Below are positions 472 to 54,104 of a stretch of 64,000 bases of DNA, in pieces. The DNA lies in contig BCKT01000010.1 of assembly GCA_003116875.1 (NCBI GenBank), positions 1,029,342-1,093,341 of the forward strand, in the 5' to 3' direction. The notes under the pieces are model-generated. The model saw only the letters and a list, made by a program, of their open reading frames with translations. It searched no databases and was not told where the DNA came from. The position numbers were made by a program, and so were the translations under genes. The stretch comes from Takashimella koratensis. Its lineage: Eukaryota; Basidiomycota; Tremellomycetes; Trichosporonales; Tetragoniomycetaceae. Position 1 is the stretch's first letter. Each line of letters opens with the position of its first letter.

Positions 472-3400
472 CTACCACATCCACTGTTTCCCAAACCACC
501 CATTCCCTCTTCCATTCCCATCTGGTTCTTGACTCCTCTCTCCCTCCGCCCTTCTCCCTGGCTGCCCATCACCCACCAATCCGTTTCCACCTGCTCCACT
601 TGCTCCACCTGTTCCACCTGCTCCACCTGTTCCACTTGTTCCACCTGTCCCTCCCACCGCTCCAGAACCCCCCGCCCCCTCCCATCGATAGTACCCTCTC
701 CCATCCTCATGTATTCTCCCCCACGCTTGTGTATCCGGGTGTCTTCTCCCTTCCCATACCCCCACTCCCACCCCGGTCCCTGCCCCCCTCCCGTCCCCTC
801 CACCAAGCCCTGCACCAAACCCTGCACTGCCCCCGCCTAGTCCATACTGCTGAGCACCCAGCCCAGCCGCAGGACTAGGCGACGCATACCCTCTCGACCC
901 ATGCGGAGTCACTGTGCTCTGTGACCGTTGAGATCCTGAGCCCGTGACCGAGTCGGGATCGTCATCTGACCCTGGAGCAGGTCGAAACGAAGTCTGTCCC
1001 CGGATCTGCTGCGGTTGCTGGAGCTGCGCCTGGTGTTGGTGTTGAGCCTGGTGATGGTGGTGGTGCTGGTGATGCGGATGCTGGTGTTGGCTTTGGCGCG
1101 CATCTGGAGCTCTCCATCCCGCCCCATGACCCGCTTCCCAGCCTGTGGCGCTGATCGGCCCCCCAGACCCCGGCTGTACGACTGCTCCCGCCGCTCCCGC
1201 CGCTCCCAGGCCCGACGGTCCCGACGTCGACCCGGCGCGTCTCGACGGCGTGGCCGGGTACTGCTGCGGTACGGGAAACCAAGCGTTCGTCACGCGGACC
1301 GACGGAACAGCGGACGCCGCACTATGTCCTCGCTGGTGGTTCGAGGCGGTACTGTACACTCCCCCACCGCCTCCTATCTGTCCCGAAGATCTTTGTCGTA
1401 GCCCCACATCATCGGTTGATGCCATTGCTGTCCCAATCCCCATCCCACCGCCTCCCGCCGTCGACTGGCCCGAGGAGGACGACGCCGTCATCTCGTCGTC
1501 AGGGAACAACCGCCTCTGCGCCCGGCTCGACAAGTTTGGTAACGACACCCTGTGCAGACCGGGCGGGAGCATCGTCGATGACGGAGATGGAGATCGGTTC
1601 CCGCCGTTGTTGTTACCTCCAGGAGCAGTGATGGAGGACAGCGAAGAGGTGGATTCGCGGCCAGTGGATGTGCCGTCAGATGCAACACGAGCGGCAGCGC
1701 GGGAGTTGAGGTAGGTTCGGAGAGACTTGATTCCGTGGCCTGAGAAGACGCAGAACGATGCTTGCTGGTGTTCGTTGAATTCCTGTGTGCGTATTAGTGA
1801 AAGCTCACATGCGAGGTGATTCGCAAGGTACATTGACTTTGAGGGAGCAGAGTCGTACGCCGTGGGGAGGAAAGGTATAGATGAGGTGGATAGACTCACC
1901 GAAGGCGGCGGGCGACAAAATTGTTGAAGTTCTGGCTTCTTGAATGACGATACACCCGTCAAGCTCAAATGCGTCAAGAACGCCATTCGATTGAGCATAA
2001 ACGTCACCGCGTCTACTGTGATATTATTACAATACGACAGATGTAGACGCTCGAGGGTATCCCATCGGTCGTTGAGTGCGTACAACGCTTCGTCGGTGAT
2101 TTTCGTCACCTGCGTGGTGGGTTAGCTCTTGGTGATTCCGTGTTCGCACAGGAACCATGGGCGACCGTAGCGCGGGGGATGGAATATGGAGGAGATGGTA
2201 TTGGGACTGGAAAGAAGGGGACGGACCTTGACTAAACCGATTCGTCGAACTTTGGTGAGGTTTGAAGCGATTTCAAACACGCTCAGATCGGTGAGGTTTG
2301 AACAGCCTGAATAGAGGTCAGCTACGGTACACTCCCGAATGGATTGTAAGAACATATATAGGTAGCTCTACCCCCAGGTGCACTCACATGCTACGTCAAG
2401 GTATCTTAGTCTCGAGCAGGACTGTACGATCCTCGCGACTCCTGCGTCCGACAACCTATCACCCAAGCAATCAGCACTCACTGTACGATCCCCATTCCAC
2501 CCGAAATCCACTCCAGTCACGCTTTCTTTCCTGACTTACCGCGAGACATGTCCCAAGTGTAGGTAATGGAGATACCTCCCCAATCTTCCTATACTCTCCG
2601 CGATCGCGTCGGTGAGTAACGGACACTTGGCCAGTGTCAGGCTGCGTAGTTTGGGTGCGAGTCGGGTAAGTTTATCGATAGCTGCGTCGTTGATCGAGGA
2701 GCAAGATGTGAAATCAACGAGGCGAAGGTGGTCGAATGATGTAGTCACTGGTCGTAACAAGCTAGCCAGCTGTGGCTGATTTGTCTCCTCTGCCCCATCG
2801 ACATCCATTCGTCGGTCTGTTCGTTGATCTTGAGACTGAGACACTCTCACTTCCTTTTGCCACTCTGCAACCGCCTTGACACTCTCCACATACCCTGCTG
2901 GGAACTCCCCTTCCCCTTCGGCACCCATTACCTCCTCATCAGTCATCTCGCTGATCCTCGCCAACAAAGGGAAGCCCGCGTCCGTGATGTTCTTGTTATG
3001 GTTCATCTTGAGTTCGCGGAGGTGCGAGAGGTTGGAGAAGATGAAGAAGAGAGAGAGGTCGGTGATTAGGTCGACGTCGACTAGGTCGAGTTCGAGTAGG
3101 TAGGGACAGGATCGAGCGAGACGGGTCATTGATACGTCGGTGATTAAAAGGCATTTGGCGAGTTTAATCTGAAGAAAGCGTCGGTCAAAATTCCATGTCT
3201 GTCACGACCACGATGCGACTTACCCTCCTGAGTAAAATGCAGTACCTCGCTAGCGCGGTCACACCCTCATCGTTGACCTGTTTACACCCTATCAAATTAA
3301 TCCCTTGCAACTTGCCCCCTGCCTCCGCTGCCACTGGGATGACACTGTGATGTAGCGTCCCAATATGACTCAGATCGAGGCCTACTAGACCTGGCAGACT

Positions 3401-4325
3401 CTTAAGCAAGCTTTTCAGTGCGTCGGGCGATACCCTCGTCGCTGAGGACAAGACGAGCCTCTCGAGCCTCGTGCACCGGGTCAGACCGAGGACGTGTTCG
3501 TCGGAGAGTACGGGCGCGACAGGGGTGAGGATCAGACGCCGGACAGCGAGAGCCCAAGGGAGCGTAGGAGATGGGTTGGAGACGGACCGAACGAAAGAGG
3601 TGAAGTGGTCAAGAGAGGTGAAAGTAGGTCGGTGCCATAGCAAGGGATAGGCAGCTAGGCAGGAAGATCGTGAGACAAGAGCGGCGGACGCAAGGTCACT
3701 GGGTCGGGTTAGGTTGCCGAAGATCTGGAAGCATCAGCGTATGATAAAACAGGCCACCGAGCGGATTGCCGCTAGACTTGACCAGTTGACGCTTCATTGT
3801 ACTCACTCTTAGAAGAATCTCCATCGGCAGATCTTCAAACCCAACTCCGCTCCCTGTCCCACCCCCACTGGCTGCGCTCCCACTCTCCTCTCTCCCTTCT
3901 CTCCCCTCTCTTGCACCCCTCTCATCAACCCACTCCTTCACGTCCGATGCTGCGACCGCGACGACCGCCGCGTTCGCTGCGGCTCTCCCGTCGTCGAGTT
4001 TATCGTCGTCTTCCCCATCATCGTCGGAGACGCTGGTTGTCGACGGTGTCACACTACGTCTGCGCCCTCCGATAGCGCCAATAGCGCCAATGGCAGGGGC
4101 GGTACTTGATCCTGCAACGGCAGTTCCACTTCCTCTCGCTCCGCCGGGTGCAGACGGACCAGCGCTAGACCCTACCCCGGCGACAGATGGAGGTAGGCCC
4201 GAGTCTGGAGGGGTTCGGCCGGTCCAGAGAGAAGAAGGGTTTAGGGCGCGGTTGATCCGGTCCACGAGAAGGTCGGGCTCGCCTGCGTCTAGCCGCTCGA
4301 GCGATTCGCGGGTCAACGGCGACAT
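472..4325 (-). CDS. GRR1: GRR1-like F-box / leucine-rich-repeat protein of an SCF ubiquitin ligase
   Basis: Substrate receptor for an SCF (Skp1-Cullin-F-box) ubiquitin ligase; in yeasts the Grr1 family links nutrient sensing to turnover of cyclins and glucose-response regulators. The spliced product is about 1,090 residues in about seven exons. An acidic/Ala-rich N-terminus precedes an F-box (FEDLPMEILLR, residues about 163-173, interrupted by an intron). At least ten AMN1/GRR1-type leucine-rich repeats follow, with typical C-N-(I/L)-T-D turns such as HLSYCNNITVDAV. After the repeats comes a family-typical segment, FCRPPP joined across an intron to EFNEHQQASFCVFSG. The roughly 400-residue C-terminus is low complexity (His/Gln runs, Gly/Ala/Thr repeats) and predicted disordered. 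I start at the ATG at 4325 because it opens the exon carrying the F-box; the stop is TAG at 472-474. The family assignment is firm, but which targets it recognises cannot be read from the sequence. Confidence 0.88.
584..650. repeat. 9-bp coding minisatellite in the GRR1-like C-terminus
   Basis: About seven imperfect copies of a 9-bp unit (TGYTCCACY on the plus strand) lie in the last exon of the GRR1-like gene. On the coding strand they give a Gly-Gly-(Thr/Ala/Ser) tandem repeat. Copies differ mainly by C/T changes. Copy number is likely to vary between strains. Confidence 0.85.
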
Positions 4326-5210
4326 CGGGAAGAGCTACTGGAGGGGGGGAGGGAGGGAAGAGGAAGTAGATGGAAGATGAAGAGGAGGTGGAGATGAGGT
4401 GGAGAAGAGCAAAGTGCGTCGCAAGTCGGACACGGAGGGGACTGAGACGGGTTCGAGATTGACTGGGAATAAGGTTCGCGACGGGGCGGACGATTCGTGG
4501 ACGATTCTTGGAGATGGTCACGCTATGGGCCGAAACCAGTACCAATTTTCCGCCTGCCCTCGTTGTATCTATCGCGTTTCTCCTGGCTCGCGAAATCAAC
4601 TTGTCTTTCTTGTCTTCTTCTTCTTCAACAACCTTCTCCGCCCAATCCACTCCCGTATTGCTCAGCGGCAACCAATCAGTCGATGGTACACTTTCCACTT
4701 TCTTCTCGATATATGGTTTGAGCGCCCTCGTCGCTGTCTTACGCCAAGACGATGGATTCGATGAGCGGTAGTCTGGATGTCCAGGGTGCGATGCGATAGG
4801 ACCGGATAGGTAGTGAGCTTGGAAAATGATGAGAGGTGAAGACGGGGATAGATGACCAAGTTAAGAGCGGTCGAGGAGAGTGCGATCAAGTGGAGTTGGT
4901 GTTTGGAACCGGGGCCAAGGGACAATTGCCAATCATGCTCTTTGATTAGGAAAAGGGAAGCACGGGGCTAATGCATTTCCCACGTGCCTCCCATTCTGTG
5001 ATTACGGCTTGATTAGAATTTGATCTGCATCCGAGTTACAGTACAAAAGTGTCTACTGGGCCTCCAAGGGTCGATCGCATGTGCAAGCATGTGCAGATGC
5101 AGCCTACTCTCCGAGATATCAAAGACTCTCCCACCCTCTCTTTTCCAATATCTCAAGTCCCTCAATCCCCCGCTGCATCGCCTCATGATCCAAACTTTCC
5201 TTGCCCTCGC
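4326..5210. other. Intergenic region between the GRR1-like gene and NEO1
   Basis: About 885 bp holding the GRR1-like promoter and 5' leader (left) and the 3' end of the flippase gene (right). TTCTTC-rich tracts occur near 4615-4630. No supported gene is seen; open frames on both strands lack domains and splice-supported extension. Confidence 0.5.
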
Positions 5211-8200
5211 CTAGATACCCGAGACCTTGGCGTACGCTGCGGGCTTGAAACGCTGATTGAACGCTTTGATGACGTATAGTGGCAGACTTGAGACAGCGAC
5301 GATGACAGCGACCTTGTACGCGAACGCCGAGGAGAGAACAAACGTGAGGTCTGTTTGGATAGAATTGTCATTAGCGACGTTTCTGATGTTGCGGATATTG
5401 ATAGAAGGTGAATTTCAGCTCACCAAAGTACGCTGGCAACACTGCCATGGACCCAAAGTAAACCGCCGCAGTACCGATCTCGGACAAGATCATGTACGAG
5501 TGCCACTTCGTGATCTCCAGCGCCACCATGATAAGTTCATTAACCACGAGAGCAGTGTATGAGATGGCGACGATGTGGAGGAACTCGTTCTCAAACAAGA
5601 GGAGGGAGAGGAGCATGATGATCCCGCCTAGGACGTGTCAACACTCATTATCGGAGAAAGACTTTGGCAGATAAATCGTCCTGCGAAAACCAGTCTGTCT
5701 GGTTCTTCCGTCCTGAGACATTTGCTCACCTTGGTATACGCTAATCGTAAGCCATGTGAAGAACGTCTTGTAGCTCAACGATCGGCCCTTGATCATTAGC
5801 AACCATTGCTGCCCGAAGAGTTGCCCACCTTTGTGAGCTCCTTGTACAGCTCTGGATAGAGCAGAGCGAGGTCCTCGTTCACGTCTCGGTCGAGCACGAG
5901 AGAGAACACTGGCGCCATGGTATACAGTGTCGCGTAGCCGACCTGTAGCCAGCCTTGGTACAACGCGATCGCTGCGTAGTGTCAGCGCTGAACCAAGCCG
6001 AAGGGGTAACCTCTGGGTCGAAGGTTTACTAGGCCACTTACGAGCAAAGAAGAAGATTGAGCTAAACACTGCTTGAATAACCGCAATGATCAAACCTCGA
6101 TGAATCACAAACTGAGACAATTTTGCTGATCGCTTATACGAATTCCTCCCATGCCACAAGAGTAGTTTTGTGAGGTATGAGAATTGATTGATTGAGAAAT
6201 CCGCTGCCAAGCTCGCTTGTTTCCCTTCTTTACCTACGATCCCGACACCTACATCGGCGGCTTGGATCATACTGACGTCGTTACCGCCATCACCGATACA
6301 GCAGACCGTCTTCTTTGTGAATTCACGAATAAGATGCGCAACGTCGGCTTTTTGAGTAGGCGAACATCGACACGCGACGACGGCGGGTAGTTGCGTGGCT
6401 AGGATGATGAATTCGGTACGGAAACTGTCCAGGCAGAGTTGTAGAGATTCTCCATCGATCACGAGGCAACAGTCGAGTTTGGCAGAGACGAAATCGAGCA
6501 TGTCGTGGACTTGGTGAGACGTTTTCACTGCCTACGTTAGCAAGTGCACAATCCGGGCCCCCTTCTTCACTCACATTTAGCCACTTGGTGGATGTATTGA
6601 TTCCTCGCGACGAGTTTCGAGGAAACTGCGATATTGGTTGCCGTCTCAATCTTGTCTCCCGTCAACATCCAAATCTTCAGCCCTGCGTTCCTCAATAGCT
6701 CCAGTGTCGATTTAACGTCCTCTTGCAATTTATCCTCGACCCCTGTCAACGCCAGGAGTTCCAAATCCACCTCCAGGCACTCGCTAACGACCGCCTGCAT
6801 TGCCTGTGCTCTTTCGTCGCCGACCACCAACTGAGCTTCCCGATACCGCCTGTCAAACTCTGCAACAGCCTCGTCCGTCATTCGTTTCCGACCAAGCACT
6901 AGCGTCCTCAACCCTTCTCTCGCCATATTCCCGCATTCCTCGTCCAGCCAGTCGTTCTTCTGCACAATCTTGCTCATAATCACGTCGGCACCCTTCTGAA
7001 CAAACGTCGTCGTTCCTGTTGCGCGCTCGCGGATGATGATCCCCATACGTTTCGATTCGGACGTGAATGGGAAGATGGAGAGAATGTCAAAGGTGAATGT
7101 GTGGCCAGTATTGGAACGGAGCGTCATGCTGGTTCGATCACGCGCGACGAGCGCGACACCGACGGATTCGGTCCACTGGACAATCGCGACTTCATCTGGA
7201 GAGGACGCTTGGTATGTCACAGACCCGTCGTCATTCGTCACGGGTGTGACCTGGTATTAGGACATGATCAAGCGGTGTGACCTACATTGTGACAAGTGGC
7301 GAGGGCGATGACAGCGTCTCGTACACGCGCAGTCATATCTCGCCGCCCTCGTGCAGTCGCCACCGAGCTCTGCCGCCGACCATCTATTATCAGCTCGGCC
7401 ATGCAGATTACTCACGACTTTCATCACTGAAGCTCTGGATCAAGAGCGAGGCCACTTCGTCCATCGAATCCCATGCGAATACCACCGTCCCCATATGTAG
7501 TTTCTTCAGCTCCATCTCTGGGTCATTAGCATCCCAATTTCAAGCTAGTGCATACCATTCCTTGTCAATGTTCCCGTTTTGTCGCTGAGGAGGTACTCGA
7601 CACGACCAAGCTCCTCAGGAAGAGTGCTCGTTCGCACAATTGTCTCTGGGATCTCGGCGTCGGTCTGTATTTGCCGTGCATACACGGTCTTGCCCATATC
7701 GAGGTTCACACGAAGACTGGCGTCAGCTGGGGAGGACACGAACCATCTTACCTGATAGGGATGATGGAAGAGAAGAGAATCAGGAAACGGAATACGTAGA
7801 TGGCCCACTGGCCTCGGAATCCGTTAAGGGCGACGAGGAAGACTGAGAGAGCGAAAGTGACAGTGCAAAGAATCTGTAAAAGTCAGTTCAGGATTTTTGA
7901 GCTACGACAGCTAACTAACCTTTGCCATTTTGTTGACCTCTCTCTCTAGAGTACCCATCTTGGTTTCTGGCTCATTGGTATTGAGTACAGCCCTCGTCTC
8001 CTTCCCCGTGTAGACCACGAGGCCGACCGCTGAGCCCGCTGCAAGGACTGTGTTCGCCCACAACACGTTCTCCACTGAGAGCGGGAACGACGTCTCTGCC
8101 TGTGGTCCCGGTGCCGTCGATCTGAGCGTAAGAACACCGTAGAACGTGTGGATATCCTTGATCGGTGGGTCGGCTAAGATATCAGCTTCATCTCAACCCA

Positions 8201-51245: not shown

Positions 51246-54104
51246 TCAGATAACGCGAGAGACGGCGCCGAAGCCGCCAGTCGAGCCAAAGCCACCTGCG
51301 CCACGAGTGGTCGCCTCGAGGTCCTACACTGTCAGTAGATAGAAAGGAGGGGTGATACTCACGTCGACTTGCATGATAGGCGCCATGCGGATCTCCTCGA
51401 GGATAAGTTGGGCGACACGGTCTCCGGGTTGGACTAGGTGACGTGTCAGTGGGAAGGTACATGTATGGCGTAAGAGCAAGCTCACTGGTGAAGTCGTTGT
51501 CAGACAAGTTGAAGAGGAGAACCATGACGGGTCCACGGTAGTCGGCGTCAATAACACCGGCTCCGCAGTCGATGGAGTGCTTGGCAGCTGGGATGGGTCA
51601 GTCGAGAGCTAGACGAAGACATCGTGACAGTACTCACCGAGACCGCTGCGAGGCGCTATCCGACCGTAGGTACCAACAGGAATAGCAATAGACAATTGCA
51701 AATCGATAAGAGCCTTGCCACGCGCCGGAACGACCTTCTCCTCGGCGCTGTAAAGGTCGTAGCCCGCAGCAAGGGCGGAGCCACGGGTGGGGACCTTGCC
51801 CTTGTTGGACAAGAGCTTGACGAGCAGGTAGTCGGATGGCTTGAGCGGGGTTAGCTGAGGTTCATCGAGCTCTGACGCGCCAACTTACCGCGGTGACAGT
51901 TGGTGCCTCAGAAGTTGGAGCGGGCGCAGCGACGGGGGCGGGCTCGGGGGCTTTTGCCGCCGGGACAGGCTCCTCCTCCTCATCGGGCTGCTCAATCTCG
52001 AGGTCCTTTGCCTTGATCTCGGGCTCCGAGACTGGGGCGGGGACGACGACGGGTGCAGGGGTGGGCTCGGGTTCAGGCGCCTTGGGGGTGGGTGCTGGCT
52101 CAGGCTTGGCGACGACAGGCTCAGGCTTGACCTCCGCCTTGGGTGCGGGCGTAGCAGCAGCAGCGATCGGAGCGGTGTTGGCCGAGGTAGCGTGAGTCTC
52201 GAGATCGACGAGCTTGGGGCGGGCGGTCTTGCCGGCGAAGAACTCCTCGGCAGTAAGCGCGGATTCGATCGAGTTGGCAGGAGGGAAGATGCTGGTCAGG
52301 GTTAGCACATGTATAAATAAGACCTAGAGATGAATAGAGCGGCTCACTCAGACTGGAAACTCTCGGCCTTGCGCGGGACGATGAAGCTGAGGGGCTCGAT
52401 GGCGCCGCCGGCGAGCTTGAACGCGCGGGCAATCTCGTTCTCGGAGACGTCCAGGCTGCGACGCGGGATGAAGCCCATGCCTCGTTCTAATGTACCAGGT
52501 CAGCCACACGTATGAGATTAATGGCAGGTGCGGAGCTGGGAGAGATCTTTGTCAGGACTTACGGGGGTCAGACGTCTTGTGCTCGTTCAAGAAGTGGAAC
52601 TGGTCGCCCTCGAACTCGTAGTATCGGATGTTACCGTCACCCTTGCCCGCGAGGAAAAGAACGTCGTTGCCCTCGGCGAAGAAGGGCATGAGGATACCAC
52701 TACAAGCGTAGCCCGAGTTCGTCAGCTTCTTCTGTGTGCTAAGACATTCTACAGGATGGCTAAAGACTCACGCGCTCGAGTCGAGACTGTTCGTGTCAAG
52801 GTTGCCGAGACCACCGGTTTCCCAGAGGCAGAGCTGACGGTCGGACATTTTGCTGAACTGTTGAGACTGTCAGCGCCTGCGCTATGGATCGCCAAGTGCT
52901 GACACTCACGCCGGTGGTAGCGATACGGTCCCTGTCACCGAGCCAGACGACACGGGAGCCCTTGATACCGCTGTGCCCGTCGGCGACACGGACGGCCTCG
53001 GTGCCCGCACGAGGGTCGAAGAGACGCAACTTGCGGTCCCTACACGTCTGTTCATTGTCAGCGGAATACAGAAGCCATGTCTGCAGACACGAGCAGACCC
53101 GGAATCTCTCATGCGACATACCGTAGCAAGGGTTGTGCCGACCGAGTTCCAGCAGAGACCCTGGATAGTGTCGTTGTGGCCCGTCAAGGTAATGTGGGGT
53201 GCGTCCTGGCCGTGTTCAATGTCCCAGAGGCGGACAAGGTGGTCGCCGGATGCGGAGGTGAGGACATTAGACGCGGCGGGGTGGAAGATGACTTGACCGA
53301 CTTTGCTACCAGGGTGTTAGCGCTGAGGTCATGTAAGGGGGTGAGGACGAAGACTCACCGGCCACCGGCGTTGAGCTTGCCAACAGGGCTAAGGTCAGTT
53401 GGCGCCCATCCGTCCTCGCCCCAGCCCTCGAACAACGAGTCCTCGATGTTCCACAAGAAGACTATGTGATGTCAGCTGCAGCCGTTGCGCACAAGTATCC
53501 AACTTGGTGAACGTCAAAACAACTCACTCTTTCCATCTTCACCACCCGAAACCACGAGGCTGTCGTCAAATGGCGACCACGCAGTGTCGAGACTGGCGAG
53601 GAGTCAGCTGCGAACAAGCAACGAGGAAGACATAGCTAAGGATGATTTCAACAGCACTTACACCGGCGCAGTGTGTCCACGGGCAAGAGGGAGGATGTCA
53701 GGGAGCTTGGCTGGGACACCCGACGGCGGAGGGGTGAAAGGGGAGAACGATGGGAGGACGGCAAAGGCCTGAGCGCGAGTAGAAGGACAAGAGGTAGCAT
53801 TATCGTCAGCGTGACCATCATAGATCACAACCTCAGACTTCTGACAAGCTCGCCTGCACTTACCCCACCGCCCGAGACCTGCCAGTTGATAGCAATGTAC
53901 TTTCCGCCCGCAGTGACGAGGTCCGTGTCCCATGCGGATCCGCTGATCTTTGCGTTCTCGTAGTTGACCTTGGACCGGTTCCCGAAGACGTGGCGGTATT
54001 TGGACTAGAGGGGTCAGCTGATACAAGGGTAGCTGGAAGATGGATGCAGGGATGGGTCGGGCTGGTTTGAATGGAAGACTCACGGGGCGGACGAAGCGAG
54101 ACAT
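51246..54104 (-). CDS. Coronin fused to dUTPase (WD40 actin-binding protein + dUTP pyrophosphatase)
   Basis: Two activities in one predicted protein of about 655 residues. The ATG at 54104 gives the coronin hallmark [15 protein letters not shown] (across an intron), then a WD40 propeller ([54 protein letters not shown]) and the coronin extension ([27 protein letters not shown]) to about residue 373. A disordered Ala/Pro/Glu linker follows. A 49-nt intron (GTAAGT...CTAAC...CAAG) then joins VTA to [15 protein letters not shown], starting a complete dUTPase with all five motifs: [48 protein letters not shown]. Stop TGA 51246-51248. No Met precedes motif 1 and no stop follows the coronin part, so a separate dUTPase gene is unlikely. 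Coronin binds actin filaments; dUTPase removes dUTP to protect DNA. The usual coronin C-terminal coiled coil is not seen. Confidence 0.85.

What the first reader, a model, noticed from the sequence alone, without database searches (positions are those of the whole stretch)
51246..54104. Coronin fused in frame to a complete dUTPase
Seen: a full coronin (MSRFVRP start, WD40 propeller, coronin extension) runs through an Ala/Pro/Glu linker and a 49-nt intron with perfect GTAAGT, CTAAC and AAG signals into a dUTPase that has all five catalytic motifs. There is no stop at the coronin end and no Met before dUTPase motif 1; the only nearby ATG (in the intron) is followed at once by TAA. Known: coronins normally end in a short trimeric coiled coil, and eukaryotic dUTPases are homotrimers. 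Inference: the dUTPase trimer may have taken over the trimerising role of the coiled coil, and may place dUTP removal on the actin cytoskeleton. If there is no other dUTPase gene in the genome, this essential enzyme exists only as a fusion. I know of no described coronin-dUTPase protein, though I could not search.
Basis: partly seen in the sequence, partly recalled or inferred. Interest (0 to 1): 0.92.

Follow-up and report, generated by a model that had tools for sequence, protein, structure and literature searches.

The report
Coronin fused to a dUTPase enzyme
A yeast-like fungus carries an actin-binding protein (coronin) joined to the enzyme that keeps uracil out of DNA; the join was published in 2011 for this fungal class, but in this genome the joined form seems to be the only copy of the enzyme.

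Summary
On the minus strand, 54104..51246, fifteen exons with consensus introns encode one 658-residue protein (69.9 kDa): coronin (residues 1 to about 395), a Pro/Ala/Glu-rich linker, and a dUTPase with all five motifs. No ATG tested could start a separate dUTPase. The fusion is not new: Eckert et al. 2011 (PMC3203266, passages) described it in Tremellomycetes with EST support and proposed that the dUTPase replaces the trimeric coiled coil. In the protein search, 29 of 120 listed proteins, from at least eight genera, carry both domains. That paper reports a further dUTPase in Filobasidiella (Cryptococcus). Here, five searches of the 25.1-Mb genome, two with separate tremellomycete dUTPases, find dUTPase only in this gene. 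The genome's tandem coronin seems to carry a D-glycerate 3-kinase, again with no second copy found. The likely reading: the fused enzyme is active, trimerises the coronin, and is the cell's sole dUTPase. Any benefit of placing it on actin is unproven. A known kind, with a testable twist.

The parts
51246..54104 (-). Coding region of the coronin-dUTPase gene, 15 exons, 658 aa
   Evidence: spliced model, all 14 introns GT-AG; Pfam hits for coronin parts and dUTPase
52292..54104 (-). Exons 1-10 and their introns: coronin beta-propeller and start of the conserved extension (residues 1 to about 374)
   Evidence: DUF1899, WD40, WD40_4; closest solved structures coronin-1A 2aq5 and coronin-6 7kyx, E about 1e-84
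51889..52291 (-). Exon 11: end of coronin extension and Pro/Ala/Glu-rich linker with the motif LEIEQPD; no coiled coil seen
   Evidence: linker 396-508, 60% A+P+E; crude heptad score 0 for the linker
51840..51888 (-). 49-nt intron at the coronin/dUTPase junction (phase 0, between Ala508 and Pro509); if retained, a stop follows after 8 codons
   Evidence: VSWRVRAR then stop; TGA at 51864-51862
51638..51839 (-). Exon 12: dUTPase N-terminal part with motifs I and II
   Evidence: six-frame hit E 1.1e-36
51486..51587 (-). Exon 13: dUTPase motif III (GVIDADYRG)
   Evidence: the only match of the motif III DNA pattern in the genome
51363..51433 (-). Exon 14: dUTPase motif IV (GDRVAQL)
51246..51323 (-). 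Exon 15: dUTPase motif V ([10 protein letters not shown]) and C-terminal tail

Best explanation
The gene makes one 658-residue protein: a short coronin whose C-terminal trimeric coiled coil has been replaced, probably in an ancestor of Tremellales and Trichosporonales, by a complete dUTPase of the homotrimeric kind on a roughly 110-residue linker. Shown from sequence: the reading frame, the intact catalytic motifs, no sign of a coiled coil, and the same layout in relatives. Inferred: three chains assemble through the dUTPase, giving a three-headed coronin that can crosslink actin and, at the same trimer, three dUTPase active sites hydrolysing dUTP to dUMP and pyrophosphate. In this genome no other dUTPase was found, so this protein is probably the cell's only one, tying an essential nucleotide-pool enzyme (essentiality recalled) to an actin regulator. 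That actin localisation itself regulates dUTP removal is speculative (my estimate 0.2).
For: Complete gene model and domains. Both domains in 29 of the 120 listed proteins (Kwoniella, Cryptococcus, Papiliotrema, Dioszegia, Naematelia, Tremella, Kockovaella, Cutaneotrichosporon and unnamed metagenomic proteins). Published EST support across the fusion in Filobasidiella (PMC3203266). Motifs I, II, III and V in 27 of 27 examined fusions and IV in 26 of 27; the 27 leave out P0109 and P0114. The residues just before the dUTPase are Ala-Pro in 20 of 28 (this protein plus the 27). Crude heptad score (penalises Pro and Gly): 0 to 0.18 in 8 fusions (this one and 7 of the 27), 0.85 in the 4 coronins without dUTPase that I gave it. 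dUTPase domain E about 1.4e-55 to solved dUTPases 4oop and 2pc5. Only one dUTPase in the genome by five queries. AlphaFold2 model of the Kwoniella relative P0077: block means 61-89 over residues 531-660 (dUTPase), residues 416-527 (linker) below 50.
Against: No expression, oligomer or activity data for this species. The AlphaFold model is weak (mean pLDDT 57.9, pTM 0.52, 26 close relatives only); parts of the coronin itself (1-36, 324-385) are also below 50, so a low value does not by itself show a flexible linker. The best-scoring relative in the coronin part, Vanrija pseudolonga P0241, is annotated without a dUTPase, though its model ends within the linker. The strict published trimer motif is no test here: 0 of 27 fusions but also only 1 of 93 non-fusion coronins; the relaxed motif is in 73 of 93 non-fusions and also at the linker's start in 17 of 28 fusions. 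A first dUTPase tree rejects one clade of fusions (p-AU 0.002); a second without long rows does not (0.245). A family search missed the uracil-DNA glycosylase that a second model then found, so absence by search is not proof.
Confidence: 0.72

Rival explanations
1. The locus makes isoforms: retaining the 49-nt junction intron ends translation 8 codons on and gives a 516-residue coronin without dUTPase, so coronin-only and fused proteins coexist and splicing sets the ratio. In some relatives a start inside this intron may give dUTPase alone.
For: Retained intron gives a stop after 8 codons. The Vanrija pseudolonga coronin model P0241 ends ...SSVAKCK, as reading into a GTAAGT donor could give (by eye, no DNA seen). 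Cryptococcus bacillisporus P0123 (157 aa) matches the fusion's dUTPase domain with a two-residue MQ start where the junction intron would end (by eye).
Against: A stop in a retained intron is common by chance; both gene models could be prediction errors; no transcript data here. In this gene no tested ATG can start a dUTPase-only form.
Confidence: 0.2
2. A separate dUTPase gene exists in this organism but was missed (assembly gap, small exons, or divergence), so the fusion is an extra, as in Kwoniella and Cutaneotrichosporon.
For: Separate dUTPases in Kwoniella and Cutaneotrichosporon; the 2011 paper reports one in Filobasidiella; the exon-wise Pfam search missed UNG; completeness of the assembly is not given.
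Against: Queries with two such separate enzymes found only this gene, apart from one E 1.79 match on C14; the motif III DNA pattern hits once in the genome, at this gene, control 0.
Confidence: 0.17
3. The fused dUTPase is kept only as a trimerisation scaffold and has lost or does not need catalysis.
For: It sits where the trimeric coiled coil sits in other coronins.
Against: All five catalytic motifs intact here and in 26 of 27 relatives; the genome shows no other dUTPase.
Confidence: 0.05
4. Gene-model artefact: two adjacent genes read through by chance.
For: A short intron separates the two parts.
Against: 29 relatives with both domains, published EST support, no ATG for a second gene.
Confidence: 0.03

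Closest known systems
Tremellomycete coronin-dUTPase fusions (Eckert, Hammesfahr and Kollmar 2011, PMC3203266)
   Same: Same domain order, dUTPase in place of the coiled coil, all dUTPase motifs, same trimerisation proposal (passages read).
   Different: That paper reports a further dUTPase in Filobasidiella; none was found in this genome.
Short coronins of other basidiomycetes (for example Phaffia rhodozyma P0244, Coprinopsis P0276)
   Same: Same propeller and extension, 60-66% identity in the 93 such rows.
   Different: No dUTPase: none of the 93 holds the motif III core or the motif V core. The four tested have a C-terminal coiled coil, and 91 of 93 show its sequence by relaxed motif (73) or by eye (18).
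Trimeric eukaryotic dUTPases (solved chains 4oop, 2pc5, 3f4f)
   Same: Full-length domain match with all five motifs.
   Different: Stand-alone enzymes, not joined to a cytoskeletal protein.
Class-3 tandem coronin with D-glycerate 3-kinase insert (PMC3203266, section 8 passage)
   Same: A second coronin-enzyme fusion, apparently also present in this genome on C20.
   Different: Different coronin class, different enzyme, enzyme between two propellers.

Membership tests
Short coronin | N-terminal DUF1899 plus WD40 propeller and conserved extension | tested here: met
   Pfam DUF1899 3-61, WD40, WD40_4 357-399; coronin-1A 2aq5 over residues 3-391, E 1.2e-84
Short coronin | C-terminal trimeric coiled coil | tested here: not met
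   crude heptad score 0 in the linker; strict motif absent after the coronin domain. This is the feature that the dUTPase replaces.
Trimeric (all-beta) dUTPase | five conserved motifs | tested here: met
   aligned to solved dUTPases
Trimeric (all-beta) dUTPase | homotrimer with shared active sites and dUTP hydrolysis | not testable with these tools
   needs purified protein; the trimeric state of the family is stated in PMC3203266
Tremellomycete coronin-dUTPase fusion (Eckert et al. 2011) | coronin domain followed by dUTPase in one reading frame, in a tremellomycete | tested here: met
   in the coronin tree it sits in a 7-row set with Vanrija and Cutaneotrichosporon, 99/96
Tremellomycete coronin-dUTPase fusion (Eckert et al. 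2011) | a further dUTPase in the same genome (reported for Filobasidiella; not a defining feature) | tested here: not met

The most novel reading that the evidence does not exclude
In this lineage both coronins have captured a metabolic enzyme (dUTPase on the short coronin, D-glycerate 3-kinase inside the tandem coronin) and the stand-alone genes for both have been lost, so the cell's whole dUTPase supply is built into an actin-binding trimer; coronin and dUTPase dosage, turnover and location can no longer be separated.
Probability: 0.55. Interest if true: 0.65.

Novelty: new member of a known kind. Interest (0 to 1): 0.42.

Why it matters
The fusion itself was published in 2011. If it is the only dUTPase in some species, then an enzyme held to be essential (recalled) is permanently tied to a cytoskeletal protein. 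That gives a natural test of whether an enzyme trimer can replace a coiled coil in coronin, and of whether dUTP removal needs or gains from actin binding. It also shows annotation trouble: the same protein is called coronin by one source and dUTPase by another (for example P0077), and several gene models of it look cut or mis-spliced.

Tried and rejected
Artefact of two neighbouring genes: rejected on conservation, published EST support and lack of a start codon.

Published strict trimer motif as a test: uninformative in basidiomycetes, 0 of 27 fusions and 1 of 93 non-fusions; relaxed form 73 of 93 non-fusions, and 17 of 28 fusions through a match at the start of the linker. Of the 20 non-fusions that miss it, 18 still show the coiled-coil sequence by eye and 2 (P0324, P0330) have odd ends.

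dUTPase trees (137 columns): with 69 rows the fusions are not one clade (p-AU 0.002), with warnings on long branches (P0010 above all); with seven long or odd rows removed (P0010, P0098, P0112, P0111, P0228, P0217, P0224) one clade is not rejected (p-AU 0.245). Three rows (P0107, P0110, P0033) were dropped before building because the domain could not be cut out. In both trees this protein lies next to the Kwoniella separate enzymes (97/90, 93/79). I draw no origin from these trees, except that fusions and the Kwoniella and Cutaneotrichosporon separate enzymes group away from Agaricomycete enzymes (100/99). Whether the separate copies came from the fused one is open.

Junction count: the script gave 'AP' in 21 of 28, but one (P0095) was a match further up; at the exact place it is 20 of 28.

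Retrotransposon dUTPase as source: PMC2864245 (passages read) reports dUTPase in some fungal Gypsy elements; the dUTPase searches of this genome found none besides this gene.

Other dUTP-removing enzymes: MazG-like PF12643 no hit, weak as evidence since the same kind of search missed UNG.

Literature: ten searches of the open PMC library. Among the papers listed, I saw only PMC3203266 on the coronin-dUTPase fusion; some searches listed only part of their hits (20 of 35, 15 of 32, 10 of 22, 6 of 13), and most listed papers were seen as listing only. Passages of PMC9952340 concern a coronin identified by a Fusarium entry and do not bear on this. In PMC11651612 (section 20 read whole) CNAG_05301 'Coronin' is in table 6, a C. 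neoformans septin Cdc3 pulldown at about 25 C (logFC 2.49), and not in table 7 (37 C); I did not check that it is the fusion.

Full report
What is there. The minus strand from 54104 to 51246 holds one gene of 15 exons. All 14 introns are GT-AG, with donors of the GTRAGY or GTATGT type. The product is 658 residues, 69.9 kDa. Pfam finds DUF1899 (3-61), WD40, WD40_4 (357-399) and dUTPase (521-649, E 1.4e-42). The coronin part matches coronin-1A 2aq5 at E 1.2e-84 over residues 3-391. The dUTPase part matches solved dUTPases 4oop and 2pc5 at about E 1.4e-55. All five dUTPase motifs are intact. The linker, residues 396-508, is 60% Ala, Pro and Glu.

Could the two halves be separate genes? No Met lies between residues 331 and 597. 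I kept or removed the four last introns in all 16 combinations and listed every ATG from position 53000 on that reaches motif I in frame. Only three do, all inside the coronin domain, and only with the junction intron removed. The intronic ATG at 51865 reads AAC CTC AGC and then stops; an out-of-frame ATG at 51983 also cannot serve. Non-ATG starts were not tested. If the junction intron is retained, translation ends after VSWRVRAR, giving a 516-residue coronin.

Relatives. A search of 5.8 billion proteins with the dUTPase part, limited to proteins of similar total length, listed 120 of 581 hits; 29 of the 120 carry both coronin and dUTPase domains. Named sources are Kwoniella, Cryptococcus, Papiliotrema, Dioszegia, Naematelia, Tremella, Kockovaella and Cutaneotrichosporon. 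A search with the coronin part listed 120 of 3159 hits: 24 carry the dUTPase; of the 96 without it, three group with the fusion-bearing rows (P0241, P0242, P0293) and the other 93 include Phaffia rhodozyma and many Agaricomycetes; none of the 93 holds the core of motif III or V. The three exceptions look like cut or mis-spliced models. Saitozyma P0242 keeps only the dUTPase's end (by eye). P0293 carries a frame-shifted dUTPase: 64 of 79 positions are compatible in one shifted frame, against at most 44% in the next best listed placements. Vanrija pseudolonga P0241 stops within the linker, as reading into a GTAAGT donor could give (by eye). Twenty-seven of the 29 fusions were examined further; P0109 and P0114 (C. 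deuterogattii) were left out because their models lack the stretch with motif IV. Motifs I, II, III and V are present in 27 of 27 and IV in 26 of 27. The junction is alike in most: Ala-Pro just before the dUTPase in 20 of 28 including this protein; four others have Val-, Pro- or Thr-Pro, and four (Cutaneotrichosporon spelunceum and three unnamed relatives of it) differ.

Placement. In a coronin tree of 35 rows this protein pairs with Vanrija pseudolonga (88/65), inside a 7-row set with Cutaneotrichosporon (99/96); Phaffia, on a long branch, lies outside the 29 fusion-group rows (98/97). So the species is probably in Trichosporonales (order recalled), and the fusion probably arose after the split from the Phaffia line (inference). 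dUTPase trees are too short to fix the origin; see Tried and rejected.

Prior publication. [quoted passage not shown] section 11 on oligomers read whole). They also state that Filobasidiella has a further dUTPase.

What goes beyond it. In the window's own genome (25.1 Mb, 24 contigs) dUTPase sequence was sought with Pfam PF00692, this protein's domain, a separate dUTPase of Cutaneotrichosporon oleaginosum, one of Kwoniella dejecticola, and a degenerate DNA pattern for motif III (one hit, control 0). Every match below E 1 is an exon of this gene; one search also gave one match at E 1.79 on C14. Thymidylate synthase was found. A caution: PF03167 missed the uracil-DNA glycosylase, which TIGR00628 then found on C12 in four pieces, none over that model's cut-off, so an exon-wise search can miss a gene. 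All five Kwoniella separate enzymes listed lack the motif IV glycine that 26 of 27 fusions keep, which suggests that the fused copy may be the main enzyme even where both exist (inference).

A second enzyme-coronin fusion. The only place in this genome with WD40_4 matches over the cut-off is on contig C20; the matches at this gene are split by an intron and fall just below it. Weak DUF1899 matches also lie on C16 and C20 (E 0.08 and 0.15). At C20 (L023) two coronin-type frames (Pfam WD40_4 in each) flank a frame, 4220-5485, that matches the D-glycerate 3-kinase 6ckg at E 5e-50 over its residues 3-232; Pfam finds nothing in this frame or the one before it. The weak C20 DUF1899 match lies further on in the same open frame, which points to one protein, but I did not build the spliced model. 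The 2011 paper describes such a protein in Filobasidiella, with an additional kinase gene. Here a search with 204 residues of the kinase frame found only itself. Both stand-alone enzymes may have been lost in this lineage.

Mechanism. Coronins of other basidiomycetes end in a coiled coil: crude heptad score 0.85 in the four tested. The eight fusions tested score 0 to 0.18; the score penalises Pro and Gly, of which the linkers are full. An AlphaFold2 model of relative P0077 is modest (mean pLDDT 57.9, pTM 0.52): dUTPase residues 531-660 have block means of 61-89, the linker 416-527 is below 50, but so are 1-36 and 324-385 of the coronin. dUTPases form homotrimers in which all chains contribute to each active site (stated in PMC3203266), so an active fused enzyme would by itself make the coronin a trimer. 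That step is inferred. Localisation to actin, and any benefit of it, is speculation. In a C. neoformans septin pulldown CNAG_05301 'Coronin' was enriched at about 25 C, not in the 37 C list (PMC11651612), but I did not verify that it is the fusion.

Verdict. The kind is known since 2011. The probable lack of any other dUTPase in this genome is the part worth following.

Noticed in passing
L023 (G000:C20:143500-152500), frames 2163-3536, 3509-4096, 4220-5488, 5777-6499: Apparent tandem (class-3) coronin with a D-glycerate 3-kinase-like domain between its propellers (6ckg, E 5e-50); no second copy of the kinase found in the genome. Spliced model not built.
   Followed up: partly
P0121: A protein listed under the bird Spelaeornis/Elachura formosus groups with the Papiliotrema laurentii fusion's dUTPase (100/98): probably yeast contamination of a bird assembly.
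   Followed up: partly
P0123: Cryptococcus bacillisporus 157-residue dUTPase matching the fusion's dUTPase domain with an MQ start where the junction intron would end: a split gene model or an internal start.
   Followed up: no
P0192, P0193, P0194, P0207, P0208: Five Kwoniella stand-alone dUTPases have Lys in place of the motif IV Gly (KDRIAQL), and P0207 also differs in motif V, while 26 of 27 fused copies keep all the usual motifs.
   Followed up: partly
G000:C12:265209-266089: Uracil-DNA glycosylase found with TIGR00628 but missed with PF03167: an example of a false negative of exon-wise family search.
   Followed up: yes
P0103-P0106, P0241, P0293: Linkers of Cutaneotrichosporon-, Vanrija- and related fusions carry an Ala/Gly-rich stretch (such as AALGAASVVAGGAALGAAAMAA in P0106) that this protein lacks (by eye).
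   Followed up: no
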